This document shows, piece by piece, positions 5,185-20,494 of a DNA stretch of 20,494 nucleotides (position 1 is its first letter; each line of letters begins with the position of its first letter). The stretch is taken from the IMG/VR virus record IMGVR_UViG_3300044568_001921, positions 1 through 20,494 of that record; one strand, given 5' to 3'. Source of the stretch: a virus. The notes under the pieces are model-generated. The model was not told the origin of the DNA. It searched no databases and worked only from the letters and a program-made list of their open reading frames with translations. A program made the position numbers and the translations under genes.

Positions 5185-5185
5185 A

Positions 5186-5827
5186 CTATATCTTCGATTC
5201 TATGGCTTTAGGTGTGATGGTCTCCAGTAATTTTGTAAGTTCTGCATCGTCAACATTAAGTTGCAAAATAGGATCATCAGGAGCGATTAATCTAATCTCC
5301 GTGGGTATTAATCCCGCAACTTGCAACCTTCTAAAAATCTGTGGGCAAAGCATAGCATTTTTTATCTTTGCCGGTGAAGGTCTACCATTGGCAATTATTT
5401 CAGACTGTATTTCTCTGGCCAATAGAACTGTAAATTCATTCATGGCATTCGCTTCAAACATTTCTTCGTCTGAATACCCCTCTATCCTAGTGGGTTCTGC
5501 AATAGCTAAACATTCTGCCAACAAACCTTTTAGCATTTTTATTTCTTCTCTATTCAAATCCATCGCATCTTTTTGTATTGCTTCGTGTGCTTGCATCTCA
5601 AGAAGATCTGCCTTAAAATTTAGTAATATGTGCGGCAATGCATTGGATAATTTTAAATGCTCATATTCCACTAACTTTGCTTCGCATCGAAGTTTAGACA
5701 CTTCTTCCATGGCACCGGCAGCGATTCTTCCCTCTAAAAATCCCTTTAGAGTTTTTATTTTCTCCCAGATTGTTTCACCAATTACTTGGTATCTGTAATT
5801 AAATTCTGAATTAAATTTTGATGCCAT
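5186..5827 (-). CDS. Conserved helical phage protein of unknown function
   Basis: The protein has 213 residues. ATG at 5827 is chosen because GAGGAG lies 8 bases upstream; the TTG at 5842 falls inside that ribosome site. It starts MASKFNSEFNYRYQVIGETI and is mostly predicted helix: KTLKGFLEGRIAAGAMEEVS, LRCEAKLVEYEHLKLSNALP, LNREEIKMLKGLLAECLAIA, then EPTRIEGYSDEEMFEANAMN. The C-terminal third is less charged, with LIPTEIRLIAPDDPILQLN. No signal peptide or membrane segment is visible. I recall similar proteins beside T4-like tail genes but cannot name a function. Its setting between the propeller and a cupin protein suggests a virion or assembly role. Confidence 0.72.
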   Translation of the reverse strand: MASKFNSEFNYRYQVIGETIWEKIKTLKGFLEGRIAAGAMEEVSKLRCEAKLVEYEHLKLSNALPHILLNFKADLLEMQAHEAIQKDAMDLNREEIKMLKGLLAECLAIAEPTRIEGYSDEEMFEANAMNEFTVLLAREIQSEIIANGRPSPAKIKNAMLCPQIFRRLQVAGLIPTEIRLIAPDDPILQLNVDDAELTKLLETITPKAIESKI

Positions 5828-5842
5828 ATAGATACTCCTCAA

Positions 5843-7701: not shown

Positions 7702-7723
7702 ATTAATCCTTTATTAATCCTTT
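7702..7723 (-). promoter_or_regulatory. Duplicated ribosome binding site
   Basis: The minus strand holds two direct tandem copies of AAAGGATTAAT immediately before ATG 7701; the distal copy overlaps the stop of the collar fibre. Two Shine-Dalgarno-like sites therefore precede one start. Confidence 0.65.
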
Positions 7724-9251
7724 ATGTCTTGATGATGTAAGTAACAATTAAAGAAGGCTGAATAACATTAAAGGCAGCGCCACTACCTGTAGATGAAGAT
7801 GTCCAAGTATATCCCGCATTTTTTGGATCTCCGTAGGGTGCCGCACCGCCACCGCCCGTTCCAGAGTAATAATTGTGAGTATGCGCCGGCATTTCCGCTG
7901 TAGTCTGAACGTGAGATTCTTCTCCACCAGAATTCCCTACAGCATTTCCAAGCATTGCAGTTCCAGCACCTCCACTACCTACTAAAGTTCGTCTTGCCGA
8001 GTTGGGTAGAGTAAAAGTATTAATTCCATCCCCAACACCAAAAGTAGTGGAGATAACTGCAAATAAGGCAGAGTAAGTTGATCGTGAGATATTCGCTCCA
8101 TTGCAAGCAAGCCATCCGGTCGGTGGAGTTGCTGATCCAAATGCCATAAGTGCTCCTGTTGGAGCACCCCCTGCAGGAGCAGAAGACCAAGTTGAACCAT
8201 TGGAAGTAAGTACATTGCCTGATGCACCAGAAGCAGTAACACCAGTACCACCATTTGCAACTGCCAATGTGGCAGATAATCCCGCAGCAGTGCCAGAAGT
8301 ATTCTGATTAAGTGTCGGGAAAGTGCAATTTGCCAGATTACCAGAAGTAGGAGTGCCCAATACTGGAGTTACCAAGGTTGGACTGGTACTCAATACATTA
8401 TTACCAGAACCAGTTGAAGTAGTAACACCAGTACCACCGGATGCAACTGCCAGAGTGGTGGATAGACCTGCCGCAGTACCAGAAGTGTTCTGATTAAATG
8501 TTGGGAAAGTGCAATTTGCCAGATTACCGGAAGCAGGAGTACCCAATACTGGGGCAGTCAATGTTGGACTGGTAAGTGTCTTATTGGTAAGTGTATCTGT
8601 GGTTGCTTTACCAACCAGAGTATCTGTGGCATCCGGCAAAGTTACTATATGATTTGCCGTTGCCCCAGTTTGAATTGTAGTGATTGTATTAGTTGTTCCA
8701 TTAGGGTGAAAAGTAATTCTCTTGGTGGTATCAATTGCAGAATGTATCGTTACAGTGCCAGTGCCCTTTGCCTGTAAATGTAAACTAATATTAGCGTCAG
8801 AACCAGTTGCCAGAATGTGTGGTGGTTCCCCTGAACTATTATTTTGAATTGTAACTTGATTGACGGCAGATGCAATAGAAGAAAATTTAAGTTCTGCATG
8901 TCCATCGGCATCATCAATCTGAGCAATTACCGGTGTTGTAATAGTTGGACTGTTACTTAATACTACATTTGTAGTACCAGTTGAACTTGTAACACCAGTA
9001 CCACCGGATGCAACTGCCAATGTGGCAGATAATCCTGCGGCAGTGCCAGATGTATTCTGATTAAGTGTCGGGAAAGTGCAATTTGCCAGATCACCGGAAG
9101 TAGGAGTACCCAATATTGGAGTGGTGAAACTGGGAGAAACTAATTCTGCCTTATCAGTATTCAGATTGATAAAGTTATTATCTAGTTCAGTATTATTGAG
9201 GGGAGCATTTTTTGCTGTCCCGCCAGTAATCCGTGTTACGATGGTCGCCAT
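7722..9251 (-). CDS. Large tail fibre with tail collar domain (copy B)
   Basis: The protein has 509 residues. Residues 1-34 (ATIVTRITGGTAKNAPLNNT, then LDNNFINLNTDK) are a typical fibre N-terminus. The stem repeats a module of LGTPTSGNLANCTFPTLNQN, TSGTAAGLSATLAVASGGTGV and NVLSTSPTLVTP three times, split by an unrepeated stretch (about residues 110-220) that includes HAELKFSSIASAVNQVTIQN and HPNGTTNTITTIQ. TSNGSTWSSAPAGG leads into a collar domain from about 363: GALMAFGSATPPTGWLACNG, EMPAHTHNYYSGTGGG. The last about 50 residues are almost identical to the gene at 14619-15389. TATAAATA about 40 bases upstream of the ATG marks a likely late promoter. Confidence 0.92.
   Translation of the reverse strand: MATIVTRITGGTAKNAPLNNTELDNNFINLNTDKAELVSPSFTTPILGTPTSGDLANCTFPTLNQNTSGTAAGLSATLAVASGGTGVTSSTGTTNVVLSNSPTITTPVIAQIDDADGHAELKFSSIASAVNQVTIQNNSSGEPPHILATGSDANISLHLQAKGTGTVTIHSAIDTTKRITFHPNGTTNTITTIQTGATANHIVTLPDATDTLVGKATTDTLTNKTLTSPTLTAPVLGTPASGNLANCTFPTFNQNTSGTAAGLSTTLAVASGGTGVTTSTGSGNNVLSTSPTLVTPVLGTPTSGNLANCTFPTLNQNTSGTAAGLSATLAVANGGTGVTASGASGNVLTSNGSTWSSAPAGGAPTGALMAFGSATPPTGWLACNGANISRSTYSALFAVISTTFGVGDGINTFTLPNSARRTLVGSGGAGTAMLGNAVGNSGGEESHVQTTAEMPAHTHNYYSGTGGGGAAPYGDPKNAGYTWTSSSTGSGAAFNVIQPSLIVTYIIKT
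7786..7930. repeat. 145-bp near-identical collar tip block, copy 1
   Basis: Matches 14683-14827 with no gaps and only about ten differences. It encodes the HTHNYY receptor-tip region of the large collar fibre. Confidence 0.88.
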
Positions 9252-9291
9252 GATGAATTCCTATATTATTTACAATAACAACTGTGTATCA

Positions 9292-9299
9292 TATTTATA
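9292..9299 (-). promoter_or_regulatory. T4-type late promoter element
   Basis: The minus strand reads TATAAATA in the 88-base gap upstream of the large collar-domain fibre starting at 9251. Confidence 0.75.
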
Positions 9300-9339
9300 C
9301 CGAGTGTTCTTTACCAAATCAACTCATCATGGTTAAATC

Positions 9340-9600
9340 TTATGATGCTGGAGGTTTCTCAAATTCTATGTGAGGGAAATTCTCTTGCTTATTTATATCC
9401 CGCAACGATTGCCTATATGATTTCCAATTTGATTTTAGTTGTTCAGATAATTGATTATCAGACAATTGTGTCCAATCTGATTGTTGTAATAGGAAGTTTC
9501 TTTTTAAGATAATCTGTTTGCTTATTTCTGATTTATCTTGGAGTTGTTCTACATTTTTATCAATGTCACTATCACTGGTATCTACCAAATCTTGTATCAT
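9340..9600 (-). CDS. Tail assembly chaperone-like protein (RNxLLxxSDWTQL type)
   Basis: The protein has 86 residues. An acidic helical N-terminus (residues 1-30) leads to KRNFLLQQSDWTQLSDNQLS, WKSYRQSLRDINKQENFP and a proline end, FEKPPAS. This is the usual C-terminal pattern of phage tail assembly chaperones encoded next to fibre genes. It has the core only, without the N-terminal module seen in the gene at 14181-14606. It lies upstream in transcription of the large collar fibre at 7722-9251, which it may assist, and after the membrane protein. AGTGGA is a moderate ribosome site. Confidence 0.78.
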   Translation of the reverse strand: MIQDLVDTSDSDIDKNVEQLQDKSEISKQIILKRNFLLQQSDWTQLSDNQLSEQLKSNWKSYRQSLRDINKQENFPHIEFEKPPAS

Positions 9601-9617
9601 ATATGTCCACTAAAATA

Positions 9618-9884
9618 TTATTGAAATAACAAACGCACTTCCGGTGTTGCTAGAACTCCTGCGATAGTGCCAAGTGCCCAGAATACTAGATCCATGCGAC
9701 TGCCAGGACCAAAGTCATACCATACTCTGTTATTGTCATATCTCTGATAAATTTCTCGCATCAACCCTGTCATGGCACTAATGATAGCTGCCATCCAGAG
9801 TGATGTGATAAACGAGAATACGAATACGAGAACTACAGCAACAATGAAATGTGCCGGCTGGTCTATGTAATTTTTGTTGATCAA
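9618..9884 (-). CDS. Small membrane protein in fibre array, TTG start
   Basis: The protein has 88 residues. It starts at TTG 9884, one base after the fibre stop, with a strong GAGGAG 9 bases upstream. Residues 12-41 form a long hydrophobic stretch that could be one or two membrane segments, followed by a charged MREIYQRYDNN stretch, WYDFGPGSRMDL, and a second hydrophobic segment at about 65-80. The spacing of His12, Glu44 and Asp65 recalls small VanZ- or YfiM-like membrane proteins, but that comparison is from memory and weak. A holin-like role is possible because of size and topology, yet no endolysin lies nearby. It is the only membrane protein in the window. Confidence 0.75.
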   Translation of the reverse strand: MINKNYIDQPAHFIVAVVLVFVFSFITSLWMAAIISAMTGLMREIYQRYDNNRVWYDFGPGSRMDLVFWALGTIAGVLATPEVRLLFQ

Positions 9885-9885
9885 C

Positions 9886-10866
9886 TTATGCCGCTCCTCG
9901 TAGTATAGCTAGTTCCTCAACTATAATATGTAAAAAATGTTGAAGACCACTATCACCTGCCATTAATGGAGCGGTTCCACTAAGAACATTAACATCGTGG
10001 TTATAATTTATGTGACCCGCACCATCATAAGTTCTAAATACAAGTCTAAATTGAACTGTGAAATCCACTGCTTGACTTGGTGTTATGAGTATTGAATTAG
10101 TGTAAGTCCCAATTGCAGCATTGCCCAAATTCATTACATTACCATCATATCCACACGAACCAAGACTTTGCCAACCAGCGCCAGCAATGTTGATTTGCGG
10201 TTCAATATACATACCACCCCATGATGTAGAATCGTTTCTACAAGGCACGGTATAACTCATTTTGATTAAAGAACCAGCCTTCATGTCGGTCAGTTGTGCA
10301 AACGTAGGTCCGACAGCCCATCCAGCAGTGACGTTATAAGTCGCAGAGTCTACCTGGGCAATTATCTGCCTAGTATACCTACCACCAGTGGCCAGTTTTG
10401 CCACGTCAAGTGCGGCAGCACCGGCGGCATTCTTAATTATAGGAGTGTTTATACTTGTTGCAGTTGCTGCTCCTAATGATGGCGCGGTTAACACCATACC
10501 AGTTGATGTACAAGCACTAATGTCGCCTGATATGGCACCAGAAGCACTCAAGGTACCTGTAACAGTGGCACCAGTGGCAGTTGCTGCAACGATGGTTGTT
10601 GCACCTGAGAATAAAGCAGTGGCTGAAGTGGACGATGGAAACCCAGTACAATTCGACAAATTACCACTTGCCGGTGTACCAAGAATAGCACCTGTACCTA
10701 ATGTTGCTACACCTGTAACATCCAAGGCACCAGTAACAGTGGCACCAGTGGCAGTCATCGCTACTATTGTTGTGTCACCGGATAGTAAAGATAGATTACC
10801 AGATGCATCGGCAGTTTGAACTATACCACCGCCACCAGTTGTTATTGCCGAAATTGTTGATGCCAT
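9886..10866 (-). CDS. Tail fibre with MAST N-terminal module and unrecognised tip
   Basis: The protein has 326 residues. Residues 1-46 match the MAST module. The stem contains GAILGTPASGNLSNCTGFP and a second imperfect copy of the module core, FSGATTIVAATATGATVTGTLSAS, suggesting an internal duplication. From about residue 160, after KLATGGRYTRQIIAQVDS, lies a domain of about 165 residues (SLIKMSYTVPCRND, GMYIEPQINIAGAGW, FTVQFRLVFRTYDG) ending in the helical HFLHIIVEELAILRG; I do not recognise it. It is mostly beta-like and may be the receptor-binding tip. Its 28-base leader with the ribosome site is identical to that of the gene starting at 12896. A near-match late promoter (CATAAATA) lies 37 bases upstream. 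Confidence 0.8.
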   Translation of the reverse strand: MASTISAITTGGGGIVQTADASGNLSLLSGDTTIVAMTATGATVTGALDVTGVATLGTGAILGTPASGNLSNCTGFPSSTSATALFSGATTIVAATATGATVTGTLSASGAISGDISACTSTGMVLTAPSLGAATATSINTPIIKNAAGAAALDVAKLATGGRYTRQIIAQVDSATYNVTAGWAVGPTFAQLTDMKAGSLIKMSYTVPCRNDSTSWGGMYIEPQINIAGAGWQSLGSCGYDGNVMNLGNAAIGTYTNSILITPSQAVDFTVQFRLVFRTYDGAGHINYNHDVNVLSGTAPLMAGDSGLQHFLHIIVEELAILRGAA

Positions 10867-10894
10867 TTTATTTTCCTAAAAATTAATGTTATTA
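10741..10894. repeat. 154-bp MAST module plus leader, copy 1
   Basis: About 95 percent identical by eye to 12771-12924. It covers the N-terminal coding part and the 28-base upstream leader with the ribosome site. Confidence 0.88.
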
Positions 10895-10902
10895 GATATA
10901 AC

Positions 10903-10910
10903 TATTTATG
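10903..10910 (-). promoter_or_regulatory. Near-match late promoter element
   Basis: The minus strand reads CATAAATA, one base off the T4-like late consensus, in the gap upstream of the fibre starting at 10866. Position supports it; the mismatch lowers confidence. Confidence 0.45.
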
Positions 10911-10917
10911 ATTACAT

Positions 10918-11289
10918 TCAATCCATTACAACCCATTGGGTGGATTCTTCATTCCACTCATATTCTTTTTCATCTGCGGGCATTGCAACTGGTGATTGCC
11001 ACAAACATGTTTCTTCATCCAATGTCCAACTTTCATATGGTTGTGGAGCAAAAAATGCATCTCTAACTGAATCGTATGTGAAACCAATACTTCCGTAGTT
11101 CTTGCGTAGAGGTGTACCATTTGGATTCTTGCCACCGTATGTATGGTAACTTGTCTGAATCCATTGACCTGGACTGGAGTCCATAGGTTTCACCAATGTA
11201 TTAAAGTACTCTGGTTCAGCGGCAATAACATTAATAACTATTCCATTAAATACTTTAGCGAAATGACTATCTGTATGTATATGACTCAT
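10918..11289 (-). CDS. Conserved small phage protein, MSHFAKV family (copy 2)
   Basis: The protein has 123 residues. It has an N-terminal insertion relative to the copy at 16393-16689 (MSHIHTDSHFAKVFNGIVIN), then the same blocks: DSSPGQWIQTSYHTYGGKNP, LRKNYGSIGFTYDSVRDAFF, WTLDEETCLWQSP. It also has the acidic C-terminal tail YEWNEESTQWVVMD that the other copy lacks. The insertion looks like a near duplication of the start (MSHIHTD then SHFAKV). AAGGAT lies 7 bases before the ATG. It follows the glycine-rich tip gene by 9 bases. The function is not known to me; recurrence beside glycine-rich and fibre genes suggests a structural or assembly role. Confidence 0.83.
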   Translation of the reverse strand: MSHIHTDSHFAKVFNGIVINVIAAEPEYFNTLVKPMDSSPGQWIQTSYHTYGGKNPNGTPLRKNYGSIGFTYDSVRDAFFAPQPYESWTLDEETCLWQSPVAMPADEKEYEWNEESTQWVVMD

Positions 11290-11298
11290 AATTTATCC

Positions 11299-12123
11299 TT
11301 AAAATGTTATTGTGCCCGATGATGTCCATGTATAGACACGGTATCCACCGGCAACAGTTATAGTTGCGCCTGTAGTTGATTTCGCTGCCAGGTACTTATC
11401 TGCATATCTAATGATAACAATACCTGAACCACCAGCACCACCAGCACCACTTCGACCACCACCACCGCCTGACCCAGTATTTATAGTGCCTGCAGCATGA
11501 GATCCACCATAAGTACTTCCGCCGATTCCATTGGTATTTGCCCCTGCGTACCAACCAGAACCTGTTCCACCTGCCGCGTACCAGGTTGCTGCTCCAGAAA
11601 TTGCAGAACTTAGTCCTACACCACCACCCATTGGACTATTAGAAAATGGACCTGTACCAGTTCTATAACCAGGACCACCAATACCGCCGGCACCACCACC
11701 ACCACCACCGGCAGAATCGCTGCCACCTTGGTTGGCCGATGATGCAATACCACCGGAAAATCCTTGTCCAACAGTTTCCAAACCTCCTACTCCGTTAATT
11801 GGTCCGCCACCGCCGCCAGAACCTCCATTACCACCTGCTTGCGCATAAGCATAAGCACCACGGCCACCACCAATAGTGGTTAATGTACTAAATATACTAT
11901 TGCTTCCATTTGCATTTGCCGTGCCGCCAGCACCAATTGTTATAGTTAACGGAACACCGGAAGCTACTGCAAACCCTGCACTCGTCAATAATCCTCCTGC
12001 ACCACCGCCACCACAATAGTTAGCACCTGATGTACCACCACCACCACCGCCAGCAACTACTAGATATTCGACTGTTGGAGTAATAGATATTACAGAACTG
12101 GCTATTGTGCCAATAATAATCAA
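11299..12123 (-). CDS. Glycine-rich tail tip-like protein, TTG start
   Basis: The protein has 274 residues if it begins at TTG 12123, which overlaps the previous stop as TTGA and has GGAG 7 bases upstream. An ATG at 12171 lies far inside the upstream fibre with no ribosome site, so I reject it. After a hydrophobic start (IIIGTIASSVISI) comes PTVEYLVVAGGGGGG, many GG blocks interrupted by short loops, and the closing GGSGIVIIRY and YRVYTWTSSGTITF. This frame of EYLVVAGGGGGG, glycine loops and SGIVIIRY is a known glycine-rich phage fibre tip domain. It has no attachment module of its own, so it may work as a partner of the upstream fibre or be joined to it by frameshifting. Start and independence are uncertain. 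Confidence 0.75.
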   Translation of the reverse strand: MIIIGTIASSVISITPTVEYLVVAGGGGGGTSGANYCGGGGAGGLLTSAGFAVASGVPLTITIGAGGTANANGSNSIFSTLTTIGGGRGAYAYAQAGGNGGSGGGGGPINGVGGLETVGQGFSGGIASSANQGGSDSAGGGGGGAGGIGGPGYRTGTGPFSNSPMGGGVGLSSAISGAATWYAAGGTGSGWYAGANTNGIGGSTYGGSHAAGTINTGSGGGGGRSGAGGAGGSGIVIIRYADKYLAAKSTTGATITVAGGYRVYTWTSSGTITF

Positions 12124-12896
12124 GATATTGCTCCTACGACATACCAAGTATCTGTACCAGTTTTGATACAAGTGGCAGATTTATTTTGCCCTAGAACTGG
12201 AGAAGCAGTAGTAGTGCCTGTGGATAGTACGGTTGTTGTTGCAGGAGTTACTGCACTTATTGTGGTAGCACCTACGCCTGTCTGTATCAAAGTTATGGTA
12301 GATCCTATTGCGTATGGCACACTCGCATTGGTTGGTAACTTAAATGTATTGGCAGAAGCATTGTTAATCGTTACTATTGCGCCGGCATCAGCAGCCACGG
12401 TTACATATGCTGTGGTTGTTTGAGCATTAATTGCCTGAACAATAATTTTGTTTGTCAACGTATCAGTCGTATTCTTTCCAACTAGGGTATCAGTAGCGTC
12501 TGGTAGAGTTAGTGTATTACTTCCTGATACTGCCGGGGCTGCTAGTGTGATTGAACCTGATACTGCACCGCTGAATGTACCTGTAGTGCCTGATACTGCA
12601 CCGCTGAATGTACCTGTAGTGCCTGATACTGCACCGCTGAATGCACCTGTAGTGCCTGATACTGCACCGCTGAATGTACCTGTAGTGCCTGATACTGCAC
12701 CGCTGAATGCACCTGTAGTGCCTGCTACTGCACCGCTAAATGTATTTGCACTCAAGGTACCTGTAATAGTGGCACCAGTGGCAGTCATCGCCACTATTGT
12801 TGTGTCACCGGATAGTAAAGATAGATTACCAGATGCATCGGCAGTTTGAACTATACCACCAATACCCGTTGTTATTGCTGCAATTGTGGATGCCAT
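12120..12896 (-). CDS. Tail fibre with 11-residue tandem repeats
   Basis: The protein has 258 residues. Residues 1-46 are the MAST module. Residues 53-118 are six tandem 11-residue units of the form FSGAVSGTTG(T/A), encoded by nearly identical 33-bp DNA repeats; such G/T/S-rich repeats probably form a beta-structured shaft. They are followed by ITLAAPAVSGSNTLTLPDAT, TLVGKNTTDTLTNK and a C-terminal domain (AYVTVAADAGAIVTINN, VPYAIGSTITLIQTG, KSATCIKTGTDTWYVVGAIS) resembling the end of the fibre at 6817-7701. Its leader, TAGGAAAATAAAATG with the preceding bases, is identical to that of the gene starting at 10866. The stop overlaps a TTG start of the next gene. Confidence 0.82.
   Translation of the reverse strand: MASTIAAITTGIGGIVQTADASGNLSLLSGDTTIVAMTATGATITGTLSANTFSGAVAGTTGAFSGAVSGTTGTFSGAVSGTTGAFSGAVSGTTGTFSGAVSGTTGTFSGAVSGSITLAAPAVSGSNTLTLPDATDTLVGKNTTDTLTNKIIVQAINAQTTTAYVTVAADAGAIVTINNASANTFKLPTNASVPYAIGSTITLIQTGVGATTISAVTPATTTVLSTGTTTASPVLGQNKSATCIKTGTDTWYVVGAIS
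12556..12753 (-). repeat. 33-bp in-frame tandem repeats
   Basis: Six units of 33 bases start at 12556, 12589, 12622, 12655, 12688 and 12721. The first five differ only by one T/C position; the sixth is diverged. Each encodes an 11-residue FSGAVSGTTG(T/A) unit, so copy number changes keep the frame. Confidence 0.92.
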
Positions 12897-12924
12897 TTTA
12901 TTTTCCTAAAAATTAATGTTATTA
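12771..12924. repeat. 154-bp MAST module plus leader, copy 2
   Basis: Pairs with 10741-10894; the leader part is identical and includes the stop codon of the upstream chaperone gene. Confidence 0.88.
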
Positions 12925-13221
12925 CTTCTGGTTTGGATACTTTGCTTTGATAGCAGCAATTGTTGTTTCCCAATTGTTTGTACCATTTACCTTATCCCAA
13001 TACTGCATATCTGCTTGATCTGCAAATGATGGGTAGGCGGCAGCACGGTTTCGTTGGTATTCTTTGTTGTCATACTCAGCTTGCAACTCTGTTGCCTTAG
13101 CAGTAATTGCAATCATTTGTTCGGCAGTTAGTTTACCCGTGGAGATGTAAATATCACTGCTATTAGGTTCTTGTGTGCAGTCGCCATAAATAAGGCTGGT
13201 TGCCCTTAATAAATCCAACAT
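12922..13221 (-). CDS. Probable tail fibre assembly chaperone (YPSFADQ type)
   Basis: The protein has 99 residues. ATG at 13221 is preferred because GGAGG lies 5 bases upstream within the end of the previous gene; the TTG at 13233 overlaps that site. Residues 20-70 include DIYISTGKLTAEQMIAITAK, a helical segment. The C-terminal part, NRAAAYPSFADQADMQYWDK through TTIAAIKAKYPNQK, is the same helical motif as the end of the Tfa-like gene at 15386-15715 but with a longer insert. The Tfa beta domain is absent. The position, directly after the fibre at 13223-14179, suggests a dedicated fibre chaperone. Function is inferred from motif and context. Confidence 0.72.
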   Translation of the reverse strand: MLDLLRATSLIYGDCTQEPNSSDIYISTGKLTAEQMIAITAKATELQAEYDNKEYQRNRAAAYPSFADQADMQYWDKVNGTNNWETTIAAIKAKYPNQK

Positions 13222-13222
13222 A

Positions 13223-14179
13223 TTAACCTCCAATCTCTGTGATAATTAATTCGGATGTGCCTTTTTCGTAATTGCCGCCTAATGCAGCAAAACATCTGTT
13301 GTTCCATAGAGTCGCCGTCCCCTCATAGTCGGCAACAAGACTAAATGTTATTGGTGTGCCTGCTACTGATGAGGTTGAAACTAGAGTTGATATGTTTACC
13401 GTTTCAGGTGTTGAGTTATTATCGTCTACAACATAGCTCTGCGATGGGGTTGCTAAACCATAGCCCCGCCCTTGCCCACCTACGTTTACCCTGACGCCGT
13501 TCATATGAATATTGAAAAGTGCATCCCATGCACCTGGTACTTCCCCAATCCAACGTGCAGTCACTAAGAACATACTATTAGCGCGAATCGGCGTAATGAT
13601 TTTTGTTATTCCATTGATGATTGAATCAGTACCAGATAATGTCTGTGACCCCTGTGTTGCGGTGAGGTAGCTAACAACCTGTAACACACTGCCAGCGGGC
13701 AACGCACGCGCAGGTACTCCAGTACAGTTAGTTAGATTACCAGATGCCGGTGTATTCAATATTGCACCTGAAGTTAATGCGAGGGCAGTTGTTGCCGTTG
13801 CAGCAGTGCCAGATGTATTTTGGTTGAGTGTGGGGAAAGTGCAATTCGTTAGATTACCAGAAGCAGGCGTGCCCAGTGGGGCACCATCAGAACCAGATGA
13901 AGAAACCCAAGCAGATCCATTGTAATACTCTGTTGCAGTTGAGGTACTATTAAACCTAGTCATCCCAGTAACAGGAGTAGGTCTTTGTGCTGTTGTACCT
14001 ACTGGTAGAGTCAATGCTCCAGTACCAGATACTGCAAGAGCACCTGTAATAGTGGCACCAGTGGCAGTCATCGCCACTATTGTTGTGTCACCGGATAGTA
14101 AAGATAGATTACCAGATGCATCGGCAGTTTGAACTATACCACCGCCACCAGTTGTTAGTGCTGCAATTGTTGATGCCAT
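13223..14179 (-). CDS. Tail fibre with MAST N-terminal module and beta-rich C-terminus
   Basis: The protein has 318 residues. Residues 1-46 (MASTIAALTTGGGGIVQTAD, NLSLLSGDTTIVAMTATGAT) are shared with the genes starting at 12896 and 10866. Next come a QRPTPVTGMTRFNSTSTATEYYNGSAW segment, a common phage fibre motif, and stem repeats (LGTPASGNLTNCTFPTLNQN). From about residue 160 a beta-rich domain begins with VLQVVSYLTATQGSQTL and ends in GTSELIITEIGG; I recognise this arrangement from small distal domains of aquatic phage fibres but cannot name a receptor. ATG follows the chaperone stop by one base, with AAGGAG upstream. A second chaperone-like gene starts one base after its stop. Confidence 0.82.
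   Translation of the reverse strand: MASTIAALTTGGGGIVQTADASGNLSLLSGDTTIVAMTATGATITGALAVSGTGALTLPVGTTAQRPTPVTGMTRFNSTSTATEYYNGSAWVSSSGSDGAPLGTPASGNLTNCTFPTLNQNTSGTAATATTALALTSGAILNTPASGNLTNCTGVPARALPAGSVLQVVSYLTATQGSQTLSGTDSIINGITKIITPIRANSMFLVTARWIGEVPGAWDALFNIHMNGVRVNVGGQGRGYGLATPSQSYVVDDNNSTPETVNISTLVSTSSVAGTPITFSLVADYEGTATLWNNRCFAALGGNYEKGTSELIITEIGG
14054..14179. repeat. MAST module, copy 3 (coding part only)
   Basis: Closely matches the coding part of the other two MAST modules, but its leader differs (AAGGAGAATAAAATG). Confidence 0.85.
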
Positions 14180-14180
14180 T

Positions 14181-14606
14181 TTATTCTCCTTGTATCCAAA
14201 CTGATATTGGTTTTGTGACCCAAACTAAATCCCCGGACACTGGATTAACTGCAATCTTTCTAATCTCGTTACGATAAGCAATGAATTCTGCTTGATTACC
14301 CAAGCACGGACTGTTTGTAGGATTAATTACATCTGCTATGGTTATCCAATCAGTACTATCTAGGATACCAACAGCGGTTGCTTTATTCTGTTCTGCTGTG
14401 GCTGGACCTATTGGTTCAGGATCTGATACAGGATCATCTTCCACCACAAATCCACTATCTAGAACTCCTAGTAGGTCATAGGCTGGAAGCGGTGCAGGAA
14501 TTCCAATGGTCAATCTGTGTGCCACCAGTGCTTGGTGATACGCAGAAAGATCGGCACGCAGGATTTCTTCTGACACAGGGAGTTGATTACGATGAATAGT
14601 GTTCAT
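14181..14606 (-). CDS. Phage tail assembly chaperone-like protein (Phage_tail_APC type)
   Basis: The protein has 141 residues. Residues 1-56 (MNTIHRNQLPVSEEILRADL, H-RLTIGIPAPLPAYDLL, SGFVVED) form a module also found at the N-terminus of the fibre gene at 6817-7701. A short proline-rich linker follows. The C-terminal half, EQNKATAVGILDSTDWITI, then GNQAEFIAYRNEIRKIAVNP and WVTKPISVW, matches the phage tail assembly chaperone pattern found beside fibre genes in many phages. It presumably helps fold the collar-type fibre just upstream or the next fibre. AAGGA lies 8 bases before the ATG, and the next fibre begins one base after its stop. Confidence 0.8.
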   Translation of the reverse strand: MNTIHRNQLPVSEEILRADLSAYHQALVAHRLTIGIPAPLPAYDLLGVLDSGFVVEDDPVSDPEPIGPATAEQNKATAVGILDSTDWITIADVINPTNSPCLGNQAEFIAYRNEIRKIAVNPVSGDLVWVTKPISVWIQGE

Positions 14607-14618
14607 AAAATAATATCC

Positions 14619-15389
14619 TTATGTTTTAATTATTTTGAGTACGACAGAGGATGGTTGCATGATGTTAGCAGCTGTACCGCCTCCTGTAGATGAAGATGGC
14701 CAAGTATATCCCGCATTTTTTGGATCTCCGTAGGGTGCCGCACCGCCACCACCCATTCCAGAGTAATAATTGTGAGTATGCGCCGGCATTTCAGCAATTG
14801 TCTGAACGTGAGATTCTTCACCACCTGTGCTACCAACAGAATTTGCTAATCTAGCCGTCCCTGTACCACCGGAACCAACTGCCACCTTGCGGCGAAGATC
14901 TGGCACACCAAAGGTAGTAGAACCATCGCCAACTCCCCAAACAGTACCGATTGCCGCAAACAGAGTAGCATAGGTTGTTCTACTGACATTACTGCCATCG
15001 CACCCTAGATACCCAGAAGGGGCACTGATACCACCGAAATCTAGTATTGTACCAGGAGATACAGTGCCACCAGCCACTGGGAATCCAGTACAATTCGACA
15101 AGTTACCACTTGCCGGTGTACCCAATGCCGGAGTAACCAACACTGGACTAGTATTGCGCACAGTGGCGCCAGTACCAGTATAAGAAACGTCGGCAGGTGC
15201 TGTACTTACACCAGTACCACCCTGACTAACCGATAAAACACCAGTTATGCTTGATGTTGGTATGTCACTGGCACTGGTAAGTACAGTACCGCTAACTGCC
15301 GGCAGGGTTAATGTTGTTAGTCCCGCCACTACAGGTGCCTGTAGTGTAACTGAACCTGAAATATCTCCTGCTATTACTACTGAACTCAT
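14619..15389 (-). CDS. Short tail fibre with tail collar domain (copy A)
   Basis: The protein has 256 residues. The MSSVVIAGDISG module and stem (residues 1-105) are nearly identical to those of the gene at 15717-16391. From about residue 109 comes a phage tail collar domain: PGTILDFGGISAPSGYLGCDG, SRTTYATLFAAIGTVWGVGDG, FGVPDLRRKVAVGSGG, then GGEESHVQTIAEMPAHTHNYY. HTHNYY is the metal-binding type histidine motif known from T4 gp12 receptor-binding tips. The final segment (GGGGAAPYGDPKNAGYTW and the IIKT end) is almost identical to the end of the gene at 7722-9251. It overlaps the preceding chaperone by 4 bases and is followed after 12 bases by another chaperone gene. Confidence 0.9.
   Translation of the reverse strand: MSSVVIAGDISGSVTLQAPVVAGLTTLTLPAVSGTVLTSASDIPTSSITGVLSVSQGGTGVSTAPADVSYTGTGATVRNTSPVLVTPALGTPASGNLSNCTGFPVAGGTVSPGTILDFGGISAPSGYLGCDGSNVSRTTYATLFAAIGTVWGVGDGSTTFGVPDLRRKVAVGSGGTGTARLANSVGSTGGEESHVQTIAEMPAHTHNYYSGMGGGGAAPYGDPKNAGYTWPSSSTGGGTAANIMQPSSVVLKIIKT
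14683..14827. repeat. 145-bp near-identical collar tip block, copy 2
   Basis: Matches 7786-7930. It encodes the HTHNYY tip of the short collar fibre, while the flanking parts of the two collar domains are clearly more diverged. Confidence 0.88.
15079..15221. repeat. 143-bp identical block, copy 1
   Basis: By direct reading this stretch matches 16081-16223 base for base. It encodes the stem of the collar-type fibre; the other copy encodes the stem of the gp53-like fibre. Confidence 0.9.
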
Positions 15390-15715
15390 ACTGTATCCTT
15401 GGGAAATGCATTTTTCACTGCCTGTATCTCAGCTTTCCAAGCATCAAGTCCAGAGTGAAATATGGTATCGAACTGATCAGCGAATGATGGATACGCCGCT
15501 TTACGTAGTTCAGAATATGTTTGTGTAATAATTGCTCGGGCAACCAATACAGGTTTTCCTTGTGCATCTCCGGCAATTTGCAGTCCAGTGGATTGACCTT
15601 GCTGTAAAGAATTATAATATTCTTCAGTTATCTCTACTACATCATCAGGCATTGTAGAATGGACATCTGGGGTGTAGAAACCACTTGTTGAAACTGAGTA
15701 AAAATATGTTGTCAT
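15386..15715 (-). CDS. Tail fibre assembly chaperone, Tfa-like (Caudo_TAP)
   Basis: The protein has 109 residues. The N-terminal half (FYSVSTSGFYTPDVHS, MPDDVVEITEEYYNSLQQGQ, then an AGDAQGKPVL strand) is the typical layout of lambda Tfa-like fibre assembly proteins, which bind the fibre tip and help it fold. The C-terminal half has a helical RKAAYPSFADQFDTIFHSGL...AEIQAVKNAFPK motif common in phage tail chaperones and shared with the gene at 12922-13221. It starts one base after the preceding fibre stop and overlaps the next fibre by ATGA, so it is coupled to both. Which fibre it assists is an inference; the gp53-like fibre upstream is the closest candidate. Confidence 0.85.
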   Translation of the reverse strand: MTTYFYSVSTSGFYTPDVHSTMPDDVVEITEEYYNSLQQGQSTGLQIAGDAQGKPVLVARAIITQTYSELRKAAYPSFADQFDTIFHSGLDAWKAEIQAVKNAFPKDTV

Positions 15716-15716
15716 T

Positions 15717-16391
15717 TTAATGTCCTATAGCAAACCAAGATGCTTGCATTGTTTGATCCCAACCATTAGTAATATATACTGTAGAATTATTTGCGAAATA
15801 TCCACCCTGTATACACCCCCACAAATCACCCCGAACGCCAAATGCACCGTTGGCAATAACTTGGAATCCAGCATTGGGCATGGCGATCGGTAGAGTTACA
15901 CCGGCTGTACCGTTTGCACCAACAGCAACGGTGCCCCACTGCATTATTATACCATTTGGCAATTTTGTGTATCCAAAACTCGATTTACTAGACGTCCCAC
16001 AAGCAAACTCAGTGGTTGCCAACTGGGTTGTACTTGTTCCGCTGGGAGCAGTAACGCCAGTTGTTGTTGCAGCAGCCACAGGGAATCCAGTACAATTCGA
16101 CAAGTTACCACTTGCCGGTGTACCCAATGCCGGAGTAACCAACACTGGACTAGTATTGCGCACAGTGGCGCCAGTACCAGTATAAGAAACGTCGGCAGGT
16201 GCTGTACTTACACCAGTACCACCATTGGCCACTGATAAAACACCAGTTATGCTTGATGTTGGTATGGCACTTGTACTTGTAAGTACAGCACCACTTGTTG
16301 CTGGTAGAGTTAATGTTGTTAGTCCCGCCACTTCAGGTGCCTGTAGTGTAACTGAACCTGAAATATCTCCTGCTATTACTATACTTGACAT
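15717..16391 (-). CDS. Short tail fibre with gp53-like C-terminal domain
   Basis: The protein has 224 residues. Residues 1-40 are the MSSIVIAGDISG module; 50-105 are stem motifs (ITGVLSVANGGTGVSTAP, NTSPVLVTPALGTPASG, NLSNCTGFP) almost identical to the gene starting at 15389. The linker TSTTQLATTEFA is typical of phage fibre necks. The last 85 residues, from GYTKLPNGIIMQWGTV to SWFAIGH, match the gp53-like tail fibre C-terminal domain, which often forms the receptor-contacting tip. ATG follows the previous stop by one base and uses an AGGAG inside that gene, so translation is probably coupled. The next gene is a probable fibre assembly chaperone and may serve this fibre. Confidence 0.87.
   Translation of the reverse strand: MSSIVIAGDISGSVTLQAPEVAGLTTLTLPATSGAVLTSTSAIPTSSITGVLSVANGGTGVSTAPADVSYTGTGATVRNTSPVLVTPALGTPASGNLSNCTGFPVAAATTTGVTAPSGTSTTQLATTEFACGTSSKSSFGYTKLPNGIIMQWGTVAVGANGTAGVTLPIAMPNAGFQVIANGAFGVRGDLWGCIQGGYFANNSTVYITNGWDQTMQASWFAIGH
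16081..16223. repeat. 143-bp identical block, copy 2
   Basis: Identical to 15079-15221. Downstream of the shared stem in the coding direction the two fibres have unrelated tips. Confidence 0.9.
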
Positions 16392-16392
16392 A

Positions 16393-16689
16393 TTATGCTC
16401 CTATTAATTCCGGATTTGGATTAACCCACTGACACGTTTCTTCATCCAGTGTCCAAGTAGAATCTGGTTGTGGTGGGATAAACGCATCTCTAGCTGGATC
16501 ATATGTGTATCCGATACCTGCGTAGTTCTTGCGTAGAGGTTTGTCGTTAGGGTGCTTACCACCGTATGTGTTGTAACTTGTTTGTATCCATTGACCTGGA
16601 CTGGAGTCTACGAATGTGTCGAAGAACTCTGCTTCGGCAACAATGACGTTAATAACTTTTCCATCCAATACTTTAGCGAAATGACTCAT
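16393..16689 (-). CDS. Conserved small phage protein, MSHFAKV family (copy 1)
   Basis: The protein has 98 residues and begins MSHFAKVLDGKVINVIVAE, followed by SSPGQWIQTSYNTYGGKHP, an RKNYAGIGYTYDPARDAFIPPQP block and WTLDEETCQW. This small family recurs in the structural regions of T4-like aquatic phages; to my knowledge its function is not established. It is a paralogue of the gene at 10918-11289 but stops about 15 residues earlier, lacking the EYEWNEESTQWV tail. AAGGAT is the ribosome site. A TATAAATA late promoter element lies about 32 bases upstream, so this gene probably opens the transcript that continues into the fibre-chaperone array. No signal peptide or membrane segment is visible. 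Confidence 0.85.
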   Translation of the reverse strand: MSHFAKVLDGKVINVIVAEAEFFDTFVDSSPGQWIQTSYNTYGGKHPNDKPLRKNYAGIGYTYDPARDAFIPPQPDSTWTLDEETCQWVNPNPELIGA

Positions 16690-16720
16690 GATTTATCCTT
16701 AAAATTTTATTACATGCATC

Positions 16721-16728
16721 TATTTATA
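16721..16728 (-). promoter_or_regulatory. T4-type late promoter element
   Basis: The minus strand reads TATAAATA in the 47-base gap between the second polyglycine gene and the MSHFAKV gene starting at 16689. It would drive the fibre-chaperone array. Confidence 0.75.
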
Positions 16729-16736
16729 ACTAATAT

Positions 16737-17570
16737 TTAAACTTTCGCTCCATATGTTGTGCCAAGAGCACCACTCCAAGTTACAAATCCATTTCCACTG
16801 ACAGCAGCACCTGCCGCTCCACCACCACCGGCACCTTGACCTCGTTGACCGCCGCCACCACCATGTCCAACTGCGCCGCTGGCACCACCAGAACCTCCAG
16901 GACCAGAACTACTAAATTTACCACTACCACCGTGCGCAGATCCACCGCCACCACCGGCATATAATGATCCAGCCCCGCCGTGGCTAGTTCCACCGCCGCC
17001 GGTACCATAACCGCCGCCGCCGCCTCCACCGCCACCTGTTGGTCCAAGTCCATTACCACCGCCACCACCACCGCCTCCACCGCCACCAATTGTACCATTA
17101 TTTACTATGGTTATGGGGGCAGTAACTCTTATACCAGTACCACCGGCAGCACCCCAATTTCCACCACCATAACCACCAGTACCACCCTTCCCCATTATTA
17201 TACCATTGTTTATTAATTTTGCGCCGTTGGGAAATGGTCCATTAATTGTAAAGGCTGGAGTACCCGAGCTAGATGACAATATTATCGTTCCAGCATTTAT
17301 AGTTAATTCAACGTAAGAATTTTGATTCCACCCAGCGGCGATTGCCAATGTCCGATAATCGCCTTGATACTGTGTTGGAGCTGCCGGAGCATATGTAAGA
17401 AATTGGGAACTAGATTTGCCATGACCATGGGAAAACGAGACCGCGCCAGTGGCACGTTCGAATAATCCACGTACACCTGCGTGATCAAGAGATAAAGTTG
17501 CTGTTGCACTCAAACTTAATTCAGTGTTTATGTTTGTTGCCGATATTGGACCAGATATTGGGAGTCCCAT
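16737..17570 (-). CDS. Polyglycine adhesin-like tail fibre protein (copy 2)
   Basis: The protein has 277 residues and is a clear full-length paralogue of the preceding gene. The N-terminus MGLPISGPISATNINTELSL is followed by AGVRGLFERATGAVSF and HGHGKSS. Shared landmarks are the WNQNSYVELTI segment near residue 81, FPNGAKLINNGIIMGKGG near 114-130, an 11-glycine run at 162-172, GKFSSSGPGGSGG, QRGQGAGGGGAAGAA and the end GTTYGAKV. The two copies differ mostly in the loops between glycine blocks, where receptor-contacting residues would be expected if this is a polyglycine-II type adhesin. AGGA lies 7-8 bases upstream of the ATG. Possible roles are a distal adhesin cap or a short fibre tip. Confidence 0.8.
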   Translation of the reverse strand: MGLPISGPISATNINTELSLSATATLSLDHAGVRGLFERATGAVSFSHGHGKSSSQFLTYAPAAPTQYQGDYRTLAIAAGWNQNSYVELTINAGTIILSSSSGTPAFTINGPFPNGAKLINNGIIMGKGGTGGYGGGNWGAAGGTGIRVTAPITIVNNGTIGGGGGGGGGGGNGLGPTGGGGGGGGGYGTGGGGTSHGGAGSLYAGGGGGSAHGGSGKFSSSGPGGSGGASGAVGHGGGGGQRGQGAGGGGAAGAAVSGNGFVTWSGALGTTYGAKV

Positions 17571-17604
17571 GTTATTTTCCTGTTTATTTTAATATTTTGT
17601 TTAT

Positions 17605-18447
17605 TTAATTAAGAGAACCATATGTTGTGCCAAGAGCAGTCCAAGTTACATATGCATTTCCATTAATGGCTGCACCTGCCGCTCCACCACCACCGGCACC
17701 TTGACCTCGTTGACCTACACTACCACCATGACCAACAGCACCTATGTTCCCGCCAGAACCCCCTGCTCCAGAACTACTAAATTTACCTCTGCCGCCGACG
17801 TGACCACCGCCACCACCGCCGCCATATAATGAACCCCCAGCACCACCGACCCATGCTCCAGCACCATATGAAGCACCGCCACCACCACCGCCGCCATGTC
17901 CATGAGCAGATCCTTCACCGGAACCCCCGCCTCCACCACCGCCTCCACCGCCACCAATTGTACCATTATTTTCAATAATTATTGGAGTAGAAACATTTAC
18001 ACCTGGACCACCGGCAGCACCCCAACTTCCATTGCCACCTTGCCCACCATTACCACCCCTTCCCATTATTATACCATTGTTTATTAATTTTGCACCGTTG
18101 GGGAATGCCCCATCAATTGTTAGAGCCGGTATACTTGTAGAATTTGACAATATTACTGTTGACGCACTTATAGTTACTTCAACATAAGCATTTTGATTCC
18201 ACCCACCCTCTATTGCCATCTGCCGCAAATTTAATCCATATGCTCCACCGCTTGGAGGAACATATGGAATATACATAGAGATAAATTTACCATGACCATG
18301 GTCATATGAGATTTCACTCTCTGTAATTGGTCGTGTAAATAATACGCGCACTGGTGGATCATTTAATGCTGTAGTTGACAGTGGTGGTGCCATCAACTCA
18401 GCATTAATATCATCGGCAGATAACGGACCAGACAGTGGAAGTGTCAT
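17605..18447 (-). CDS. Polyglycine adhesin-like tail fibre protein (copy 1)
   Basis: The protein has 280 residues. Residues 1-55 (LPLSGPLSADDINAEL, then VRVLFTRP and HGHGK) form an N-terminal module seen in many phage structural proteins and shared with the next gene. Residues 80-125 are beta-rich (WNQNAYVEVTISASTVIL, ALTIDGAFPNGAKLINNGIIMG). From residue 130 the chain is dominated by glycine, with an unbroken run of 11 at 165-175 and many GGGGxGG blocks. It ends in a short non-glycine cap (INGNAYVTWTALGTTYG). Known T-even-like adhesins such as gp38 use glycine-rich segments packed as polyglycine-II helices to display receptor loops; the layout here is compatible, but homology to gp38 is inferred. 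The ribosome site is weak (GTAGAAAAAATG), only 12 bases after the preceding gene. Confidence 0.8.
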   Translation of the reverse strand: MTLPLSGPLSADDINAELMAPPLSTTALNDPPVRVLFTRPITESEISYDHGHGKFISMYIPYVPPSGGAYGLNLRQMAIEGGWNQNAYVEVTISASTVILSNSTSIPALTIDGAFPNGAKLINNGIIMGRGGNGGQGGNGSWGAAGGPGVNVSTPIIIENNGTIGGGGGGGGGGGSGEGSAHGHGGGGGGGASYGAGAWVGGAGGSLYGGGGGGGHVGGRGKFSSSGAGGSGGNIGAVGHGGSVGQRGQGAGGGGAAGAAINGNAYVTWTALGTTYGSLN

Positions 18448-18459
18448 TTTTTCTACGTA

Positions 18460-19161
18460 CTATTTTTGTAATGCAGTTACCTTTGCGTCCAATTCTTTAA
18501 TTGCTTCAATTAATAATGGAACGATTCTGTCATAATGTACAGTCATATAGTTTTCACCTGATTTGCTATATTCGCTGCCATCGGCATTTTGCGCAATATC
18601 AAACGGGGCAGGAGTTACTATTTGAGGTAAAACTTTTTGGATTTGTTGAGATAATATGCCGACTTGTTCTTCATCTGACGTGTAACCATATTGTTTAGCA
18701 ACCTCGTTGCCCTTGTATATAACACCGTCCAATGATTTAACTGCTTCCAATGGATTCTTGATATTGCAAATAACATCTTTCAATCTAGCATCAGAATAGA
18801 ATGCTGTAATGTTGTTTGTGGCGCGAATTTCACCAGCAACTGCAGATGGAGCAGTGCCAACACCGAAAGAATTAACTTGGTAGTTGGCAGTAGTTACCAA
18901 AATACCAGCAGATCCAGAAGTGTTCTGATTAAGTGTTGGGAACACACAATTTGTTAGATCACCAGAAGCAGGAGTACCCAACGTTGGATTTACCAATGTT
19001 GGACTGGTAGCAAATACAACGGCACCAGTGCCAGTTGCCTCTGTATTTGTAAGTACAGTACCACTAGCTGTAGGTAGGGTTAATACAGTTGCGCCTGCAT
19101 TGGGTTGAGCTTGTAACGTAACAGTACCTGAAACATCCCCTGAAATGACTACACTTGACAT
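18460..19161 (-). CDS. Short tail fibre with S74 self-cleaving chaperone domain
   Basis: The protein has 233 residues. ATG at 19161 is chosen because GGAG lies 6 bases upstream; a TTG at 19173 overlaps that ribosome site and is unlikely. Residues 1-40 are the MSSVVISGDVSG N-terminal module also found in the genes starting at 16391 and 15389. Residues 50-95 carry stem motifs (SPTLVNPTLGTPASGDL, FPTLNQNTSGSAG). From about residue 112 it is an S74 intramolecular chaperone domain with Ser123 and Lys128 in YSDARLKD, then the EQVGILSQQIQKVLPQIV core and a terminal helix. The fibre is probably processed to about 122 residues after trimer folding. A TATAAATA element and an AT-rich inverted repeat lie upstream, so it probably starts a late transcript. 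Strongly paralogous to the upstream gene over the last 120 residues. Confidence 0.9.
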   Translation of the reverse strand: MSSVVISGDVSGTVTLQAQPNAGATVLTLPTASGTVLTNTEATGTGAVVFATSPTLVNPTLGTPASGDLTNCVFPTLNQNTSGSAGILVTTANYQVNSFGVGTAPSAVAGEIRATNNITAFYSDARLKDVICNIKNPLEAVKSLDGVIYKGNEVAKQYGYTSDEEQVGILSQQIQKVLPQIVTPAPFDIAQNADGSEYSKSGENYMTVHYDRIVPLLIEAIKELDAKVTALQK

Positions 19162-19218
19162 ATTATTCTCCAAAAATTACAACATATTTGATGATACAAT
19201 TTACAATTTTGATACATA

Positions 19219-19241
19219 ACATTATTTATAATAAATAATGT
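19219..19241. repeat. AT-rich inverted repeat over late promoter
   Basis: ACATTATTTA at 19219-19228 and TAAATAATGT at 19232-19241 are perfect inverted copies around 3 bases. The repeat contains the TATAAATA element and follows the stop of the S74 fibre by about 40 bases. Confidence 0.6.
19223..19230 (-). promoter_or_regulatory. T4-type late promoter element
   Basis: The minus strand reads TATAAATA in the gap between the two S74 fibre genes, about 62 bases before the ATG at 19161. It lies within an AT-only inverted repeat. Confidence 0.65.
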
Positions 19242-19280: not shown

Positions 19281-20494
19281 TTATTTACCTGCTTTTTGTA
19301 GTTCAAGTATTTGAACTTGTTGCTCCTTGATTGCCTCGATCAATAATGGAATCAGTTTCTCATATTGAATTGTCAAGTAATTCTCACCGGACTTACTATA
19401 TTCACTGCCGTCCTCTGCCTGTGCTATATCAAATGGCGCCGGAACAACAACTTGTGGCAGTACTTTCTGTACTTCTTGTGCTATCAGTCCAACCTGTTCA
19501 GTGTCTGAAGTATATCCATATTCACGGGCAACTTCATTACCTTTGTATACAACTCCATTTAGAGACATCACTGCTTCCAATGGATTTTTGATATTGCCCA
19601 ACACATCCTTCAATCTAAGATCGGAGTAATATGCTGTCACATTATTTGTGGCACGAATGTCACCTGTCACTCCAGATGCCGGTGTACCGACCCCAAGAGA
19701 TCTTATCTGATAACTATTTGTGGTGACCAGTACCGCAGCAGATCCAGAAGTGTTCTGGTTGAATATTGGCCAGGTGAAGGTACCAGCACTGAAATCACCG
19801 GATACTGGAATTCCAAGGGCAGGTGTAACCAAGGTTGGTGAGATACTTAACACAACACTTCCGGTACCCGTCTTAGAATTGACACCAGTTCCACCCTGAA
19901 GAACTGACAATGGTGTGAGTAACCCAGTCAATTGAGTAATATCACCATTTGTTCCACTAATTGCAGCCGATAGATTTGCCCTTGCTTGCGTGGCAGTAGT
20001 TCCACCAGTACCACCAGATGCCACTGCCAGAGTGATAGATAGACCTGCGGCAGTGCCAGTTGTATTTTGATTCCAGATTGTAGGTGTACCAGTCAATCCA
20101 CCAAACGCAACAGTTCCGGCAGATCCAGAAACATTGCCAGTAACATTACCAATCAATGTTGTTGGAGATCCTATTGTTCCTATCGCCCCAATAAATGATG
20201 TGGCAGTTATAACATTTGCTGAAAAATTACCTCCACTATCCCGCGCCACAATAGTATCTGGGGCAGATATTGTAGATGTATTCATATCATCTAATAAGTC
20301 TGCATTCAACCCAGATCCAGGACCATCCACTGTTTTGAGTTTGATAAGTACATCTGCCGCAACATATGCATCAGCAGCAATTTTTAAATTACTAAAATTC
20401 AAATCTACTTGATCATTTGTTAGTGGGATACCCAAATATGTTACAGACTCTGGTGGCAAAGAACCAGATGCTGCTCTAAGATATAATGATACTG
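19281..20494 (-). CDS. Tail fibre with C-terminal S74 chaperone domain (5' end outside window)
   Basis: The reading frame stays open to the window edge, so the true start lies beyond position 20494; the TTG at 20459 is internal. Near the visible N-terminus is a PLTNDQVDLNFSNLK motif, common near the start of T4-like phage fibres. The middle is stem-like, with repeated QNTSGTAAGLS, LAVASGGTG and LVTPALGIPVSGDF elements. The last roughly 115 residues match the intramolecular chaperone (peptidase S74) family: YYSDLRLKD contains the Ser and Lys five residues apart that form the self-cleavage dyad, followed by EQVGLIAQEVQKVLPQVV and a C-terminal helix. In this family the domain helps the fibre trimerise and then cuts itself off before the Ser. 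The C-terminal domain is paralogous to that of the next gene. Family is clear; receptor and position in the virion are unknown. Confidence 0.9.
   Translation of the reverse strand, partial: VSLYLRAASGSLPPESVTYLGIPLTNDQVDLNFSNLKIAADAYVAADVLIKLKTVDGPGSGLNADLLDDMNTSTISAPDTIVARDSGGNFSANVITATSFIGAIGTIGSPTTLIGNVTGNVSGSAGTVAFGGLTGTPTIWNQNTTGTAAGLSITLAVASGGTGGTTATQARANLSAAISGTNGDITQLTGLLTPLSVLQGGTGVNSKTGTGSVVLSISPTLVTPALGIPVSGDFSAGTFTWPIFNQNTSGSAAVLVTTNSYQIRSLGVGTPASGVTGDIRATNNVTAYYSDLRLKDVLGNIKNPLEAVMSLNGVVYKGNEVAREYGYTSDTEQVGLIAQEVQKVLPQVVVPAPFDIAQAEDGSEYSKSGENYLTIQYEKLIPLLIEAIKEQQVQILELQKAGK

What the first reader, a model, noticed from the sequence alone, without database searches (positions are those of the whole stretch)
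16737..18447. Adjacent paralogous polyglycine adhesin candidates
Two neighbouring proteins share the whole architecture, each with an 11-glycine run, but differ in the loops between glycine blocks. In gp38-type adhesins such loops contact the receptor. Two copies side by side suggest dual specificity. The shared N-terminus and end cap differ from gp38, so this may be a distinct adhesin type.
Basis: partly seen in the sequence, partly recalled or inferred. Interest (0 to 1): 0.55.

Follow-up and report, generated by a model that had tools for sequence, protein, structure and literature searches.

The report
Paired gp38-like phage fibre-tip adhesins
A virus of bacteria carries two sister proteins that are very probably the cell-gripping tips of its tail fibres, built like the known T-even phage adhesin gp38 but mounted on the fibre by a different, widespread and so far unnamed plug, of which the two sisters carry different versions.

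Summary
Two adjacent genes (17605-18447 and 16737-17570, minus strand) encode 63% identical proteins, each with an 11-glycine run. They are gp38-type polyglycine adhesins. Both pass Pfam's GP38 cut-off through to the C-terminus, beat every shuffled control, and their template-free AlphaFold models match the crystal structures of S16 and PP01 gp38 (Z about 23-24; next chains below 7). So the end cap does not differ from gp38, but the N-terminal attachment part does: no Gp38_N match and none of gp38's docking tryptophans. It is a three-fold repeated cap, absent from Pfam. In related contigs this cap follows directly behind fibre genes that end in an S74 chaperone, or that stop where S74 would be cut off. 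Companion fibres are next door: two S74 fibres lie upstream. The paralogues differ most in the cap, not only in the loops. Breakpoints suggest a fibre-adhesin pair inserted between another fibre and its adhesin, so the likeliest reading is two fibre types, each with its own tip. Receptors, dual specificity and the pairing itself are inferred. New variant of a known kind; the general cap family is the more interesting part.

The parts
17605..18447 (-). adhesin A1, 280 aa: cap, beta-helix, PGII sandwich, C-terminal strand
   Evidence: ORF; Pfam GP38 55.3 bits v cut-off 25; AF2 mean pLDDT 82.5; Z 23.6 to 6F45_D over 194 residues, rmsd 2.2
16737..17570 (-). adhesin A2, 277 aa, same architecture
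   Evidence: ORF; Pfam GP38 34.8 bits v cut-off 25; AF2 mean pLDDT 85.8; Z 23.8 to 6F45_D over 225 residues, rmsd 4.1; Z 23.4 to 9V85_A over 207, rmsd 2.6
18286..18447 (-). cap of A1 (aa 1-54), presumed docking plug; type X
   Evidence: 43/54 identical to the L008 cap but 25/52 to A2; three helices predicted, low confidence
17415..17570 (-). cap of A2 (aa 1-52), presumed docking plug; type Y
   Evidence: 36/52 identical to the L016 cap, 25/52 to A1; three helices predicted, low confidence
17662..18063 (-). PGII glycine-rich domain of A1 (aa 129-262)
16797..17192 (-). PGII glycine-rich domain of A2 (about aa 127-258)
17923..17955 (-). 11-glycine run of A1
17055..17087 (-). 11-glycine run of A2
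   Evidence: sequence
18460..19173 (-). S74 fibre F2, 237 aa, 12 bases upstream of A1; tip and S74 of type X
   Evidence: Pfam Peptidase_S74 36.2 bits v 22; S74 part 300/336 nt identical to the L008 fibre, 230/336 to F1
19281..20492 (-). S74 fibre F1, 405 aa in L003 (first two codons missing at the window edge); tip and S74 of type Y
   Evidence: Pfam Peptidase_S74 43.1 bits v 22; body 90-100% identical to the L008 fibre in 60-base steps, then a break near aa 267
18463..18795 (-). S74 chaperone part of F2 (111 aa), predicted to cut itself off before SDARLK
   Evidence: S16 gp37 loses its last 113 residues in the same place (PMC7917993, passages read)
19223..19230 (-). TATAAATA, T4-type late promoter-like box 50 bases upstream of F2
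   Evidence: 8 in window, 1.53 expected, 0 of 100 shuffles reach 8; the motif's meaning is recalled
16721..16728 (-). TATAAATA box just after A2, upstream of the next gene

Best explanation
A1 and A2 are gp38-type receptor-binding tips of a T4-like phage. Each is thought to dock as one molecule on the end of a trimeric fibre whose S74 chaperone has cut itself off, with three helices of its N-terminal cap meeting the three faces of the trimer, and to present turns of a polyglycine-II sandwich to the cell. Shown here: family, predicted fold, cap type, neighbouring S74 fibres, breakpoints. Inferred: docking, receptors, and the pairing. On pairing: F2 with A1 form one unit (type X, as in L005 and L008), inserted between F1 and A2 (type Y), so the virus carries two fibre types with different tips (this pairing step alone: about 0.5).
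For: Pfam GP38 above its cut-off and matched in 26 of 30 family members. A gp38 profile from 7 named phages scores A1 33.1 and A2 18.1 bits; 0 of 1000 residue shuffles and 0 of 1000 glycine-preserving shuffles of either reach it. Family profile finds S16 gp38 at E 1.3e-7 and PP01 gp38 at 9.5e-6. AF2 models match 6F45 and 9V85 at Z 22.9-23.8, next rows below 7. S16 gp37 ends in S74 and is followed by gp38. Of 51 related contigs examined, 38 have an S74 fibre ending within 17 bases of the cap gene and 7 an S74-less fibre ending at the cut site (10 of the 38 rest on Pfam scans of 4 representatives and on sequence likeness). A search with the fibre tip alone gave 80 loci; 72 had a next gene and 66 of these encode an adhesin of this family (62 by cap profile, 4 by adhesin profile). 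Caps are a threefold repeat in register with the three predicted helices. A1 tracks L008 up to aa 113 and A2 after it; A2's cap tracks L016; the L008 fibre switches from F1-like to F2-like near aa 267; 0 of 5000 permutations each. Tip and cap likeness correlate over 62 pairs (r 0.28, 0 of 2000), tip and the rest of the adhesin do not (r -0.01).
Against: No protein contact or binding was measured. Cap confidence is low (pLDDT about 50-68). Within S74-less fibres alone the tip-cap correlation is weak (r 0.12, 61 of 2000). The F1-A2 pairing is by exclusion. In Pseudomonas phages Milchi and Astolliot two and three cap genes follow one S74 fibre, so one fibre type may serve several tips. L016 and L017 carry an A2-like adhesin with no S74 fibre beside it. 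Loops show no excess change over the beta-helix.
Confidence: 0.7

Rival explanations
1. Both adhesins fit the same fibre tip, so fibres of one kind carry either tip at random and the virus gets mixed specificity without two fibre types.
For: A1 and A2 follow F2 between two TATAAATA boxes. One S74 fibre is followed by two or three cap genes in Milchi and Astolliot and by two cap genes in contigs of the L051-L059 group.
Against: Caps of A1 and A2 are only 25/52 identical with dS 1.49 against 0.61-0.66 in the beta-helix and PGII parts, although the rest was homogenised. Two S74 fibres with different tips are present.
Confidence: 0.3
2. One copy is a spare or a donor of sequence for the other rather than a working tip.
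For: Beta-helix and PGII parts look recently exchanged between A1 and A2.
Against: Both frames are intact, dN/dS is 0.41 overall and 0.14 at glycine columns, A2 has its own AGGA ribosome site, and both are intact and identical in L003.
Confidence: 0.1
3. Glycine-rich low-complexity structural or chaperone proteins unrelated to gp38, matched through composition.
For: Glycine makes up 29% and 32% of the proteins, and matches in repeats can mislead.
Against: 0 of 1000 shuffles with glycines held in place reach the gp38 score; fold match Z above 22.
Confidence: 0.03

Closest known systems
gp38 adhesin of Salmonella phage S16 and E. coli phage PP01 (T2-type gp38; PDB 6F45, 9V85)
   Same: beta-helix with polyglycine-II sandwich, C-terminal strand, gene behind an S74-bearing fibre
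   Different: no Gp38_N domain, no tryptophan in the caps; a repeated cap instead; two copies; two S74 fibres
Haloarchaeal hafunavirus glycine-rich adhesins (PMC8651126, passages read)
   Same: glycine-rich tip with hypervariable segments that track host range
   Different: not compared by sequence here; archaeal viruses
Myocyanophage Pam3 gp24 (PMC9608196, passages read)
   Same: glycine-rich lattice at a fibre tip
   Different: itself a trimeric fibre with a TNF-like domain and no separate adhesin
Brush / Gly_rich_2 (PF21722) tips
   Same: glycine-rich phage domain; carried by the same cap in Pelagibacter phage HTVC008M
   Different: A1 and A2 do not match PF21722

Membership tests
T2-type gp38 adhesin | GP38 domain (PF05268) to the C-terminus | tested here: met
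   shuffles
T2-type gp38 adhesin | polyglycine-II sandwich on a beta-helix | tested here: met
   by prediction only:
T2-type gp38 adhesin | Gp38_N attachment domain (PF21721) | tested here: not met
   found in all three gp38 tested, absent from A1 and A2 and from all 30 aligned members
T2-type gp38 adhesin | three docking tryptophans, one per attachment helix | tested here: not met
   no tryptophan in residues 1-54 of A1 or A2; definition from PMC6851490, passages read
T2-type gp38 adhesin | three short N-terminal helices | tested here: inconclusive
   three predicted but pLDDT about 50-68
T2-type gp38 adhesin | gene directly behind an S74 (autocleaved) distal fibre | tested here: met
   A1 12 bases behind F2; A2 behind A1
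T2-type gp38 adhesin | one copy bound per fibre trimer; binds a receptor | not testable with these tools
   needs protein work
Gly_rich_2 / brush tips | PF21722 match | tested here: not met

The most novel reading that the evidence does not exclude
The cap is a general, uncatalogued plug with built-in threefold repetition that lets many phages mount quite different receptor-binding domains (gp38-like PGII, brush-type, non-glycine-rich) on fibre tips, sometimes two or three in a row. Fibres either cut off an S74 chaperone to expose the socket or end at the socket from the start. In this virus two plug types keep two adhesins on two different fibres while their receptor-binding halves are exchanged.
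Probability: 0.5. Interest if true: 0.7.

Novelty: new variant of a known kind. Interest (0 to 1): 0.5.

Why it matters
gp38 is the textbook host-range adhesin of T-even phages. This extends its receptor-binding half to uncultured T4-like viruses with another docking part, and points to a cap by which 'hypothetical proteins' behind tail fibres in Vibrio, Pseudomonas, Alteromonas and Pelagibacter phages could be recognised as likely receptor-binding tips. It makes the question of how phages carry several specificities testable with two fibres and two adhesins.

Tried and rejected
tblastn of A2 and of the A1 N-terminal 181 aa against named phages found nothing at E 1e-5 and 1; the N-terminal 133 aa of another adhesin, L111, did find 51 records. 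Positive selection on loops: not seen (dN/dS 0.43). Likeness by composition alone: rejected by shuffles. VrlC neighbourhoods in BUCT-ZZ01, Mosig and Melnitz-3 were checked for glycine-rich genes: none in the first two, two long glycine-rich ones in Melnitz-3 that lack the cap, so no close named relative of the pair. Weak VIA-align rows (pectin methylesterase and others, Z below 7) are taken as beta-helix likeness. The BFVD match list holds other Gp38-named and unnamed phage proteins; not followed. The mean over the whole adhesin hides the mosaic, so I did not build a single tree. Breakpoint permutations treat sites as exchangeable, and many contigs in the censuses are near-copies.

The tip search asked for residues after TAY, so it leaves out most S74 fibres by design, kept the best 80 of 444 relatives, and cannot give the share of S74-less fibres. 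For the tip-cap correlation 85 pairs were cut to 79 with a cap and then to 62 after length and duplicate filters.

Full report
What is there. The window is a whole IMG/VR virus record of 20494 bases. The two ORFs are real, adjacent and 63% identical, each with an 11-glycine run; shuffles rarely give such a run (3 and 12 of 20000). The same pair is in two more contigs (L003 whole; L004 with A2 cut by the contig end).

What they are. Pfam GP38 matches both above its cut-off and through to the profile's end, and 26 of 30 aligned members. A profile of the 30 finds S16 gp38 (E 1.3e-7) and PP01 gp38 (E 9.5e-6) among solved structures. Against a profile built from seven named gp38 proteins, no shuffle in 1000, even with glycines kept in place, reached the real scores. 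AlphaFold2 models without templates reached mean pLDDT 82.5 and 85.8 and match gp38 of S16 and PP01 at Z 22.9 to 23.8, far above other rows. In PP01 the polyglycine lattice holds receptor-recognition loops that contact OmpC (PMC12892980; abstract, introduction and one results section read).

Where they differ from gp38. Three named gp38 proteins carry Gp38_N; A1, A2 and the 28 relatives do not, and the two caps hold no tryptophan, while S16 docks by three conserved ones (PMC6851490, passages read). The cap is a threefold repeat: first against last segment 0 of 500 column shuffles, first against middle 2 of 1000 and middle against last 14 of 1000. Three predicted helices lie in register with it, at low confidence.

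How they are probably mounted. In S16, gp37 cuts off its last 113 residues (the intramolecular chaperone) and so exposes the gp38 docking surface (PMC7917993, passages read); Pfam finds Peptidase_S74 there. F1 and F2 end in S74 domains of 114 and 111 aa. Of 53 related contigs listed, one had no adhesin ORF and one matched only by its end; of the other 51, 38 have an S74 fibre right upstream, 7 a fibre without S74 that ends at NVTAY, DVTAY or NITAY plus two residues, where S74 would begin, and 6 neither. A search with that fibre end alone gave 80 loci; 8 had no following gene in range, and 66 of the other 72 are followed by a member of the adhesin family. In 5 of 5 named phages fetched around a cap match the gene upstream is an S74 fibre. 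Some of their cap proteins are not glycine-rich.

The pair. The body of F1 is 90-100% identical to the L008 fibre in 60-base steps, then drops to 66-75% near aa 267, about 25 residues before the cut site; F2's S74 part is instead of the L008 type (300/336 nt against 230/336 with F1). A1's cap and beta-helix go with L008 (95 of 108 informative sites), its PGII part more with A2 (85 of 133); A2's cap goes with L016 (53 of 64) and the rest with A1 (102 of 139); 0 of 5000 permutations each. L005 and L008 have one S74 fibre and one adhesin at this place. The simplest history is a fibre-adhesin pair of type X placed between a fibre and an adhesin of type Y. TATAAATA boxes bound F2-A1-A2.

Divergence. 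Cap 25/52 identical, dS 1.49, dN/dS 0.30; beta-helix 42/74, 0.61, 0.56; PGII family-glycine columns 49/55, 0.65, 0.14; other PGII columns 45/75, 0.66, 0.43. Loops differ, but not more than the beta-helix.

Limits. Virion presence, docking, receptor and host are unknown. The nearest named relatives of the upstream VrlC-like protein (taken from contig L005) are Synechococcus, Pelagibacter and Methylophilales phages below 45% identity, which does not name a host. Paper searches (listings only, with passages of the papers named) showed no description of this cap or of paired gp38-like adhesins; the 2011 study of gp38 adhesins of the T4 superfamily was not held and the 2018 S16 structure paper was not read.

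Noticed in passing
L007 2596-4095; L008 3917-5419: A polyglycine adhesin split into two ORFs in the same frame: Ig-like domain plus first half of GP38, stop codons, then an AAAGGAG ribosome site and a new ATG with the rest. Same in both contigs.
   Followed up: partly
L052 3974-5488, L054 3971-5482 and the L051-L059 group: Cap plus brush-type adhesin interrupted by a Hint (intein-like) domain, Pfam Hom_end_hint, with the rest of the brush in a separate small ORF; other contigs keep the split without the Hint part.
   Followed up: partly
L085-L164, also L032, L039, L043, L044, L046, L047, L065: Many fibres lack S74 and stop two or three residues after where S74 self-cleavage would cut, and are followed by a cap adhesin.
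   Followed up: yes
L167 4001-5678; L166 3447-4552: Pseudomonas phages Astolliot and Milchi carry three and two small cap proteins in a row behind one S74 fibre, annotated as hypothetical proteins.
   Followed up: partly
window 105-19230: Eight TATAAATA boxes (7 on the minus strand) against 1.53 expected, fitting T4-type late promoters.
   Followed up: no
window 11299-12171: Another glycine-rich protein in the window, Pfam Gly_rich_2, 62.2 bits.
   Followed up: no
window 18460-19173, 15717-16391, 14619-15389: Three fibre genes share the N-terminal module MSS(V/I)VI(S/A)GD(V/I)SG(T/S)VTLQA in front of unrelated ends (S74, Gp53-like, Collar).
   Followed up: no
L016 2107-2961, L017 4001-4855: A2-like adhesin encoded 6 bases behind a 201-aa protein with no Pfam family above its cut-off, with no S74 fibre beside it.
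   Followed up: no
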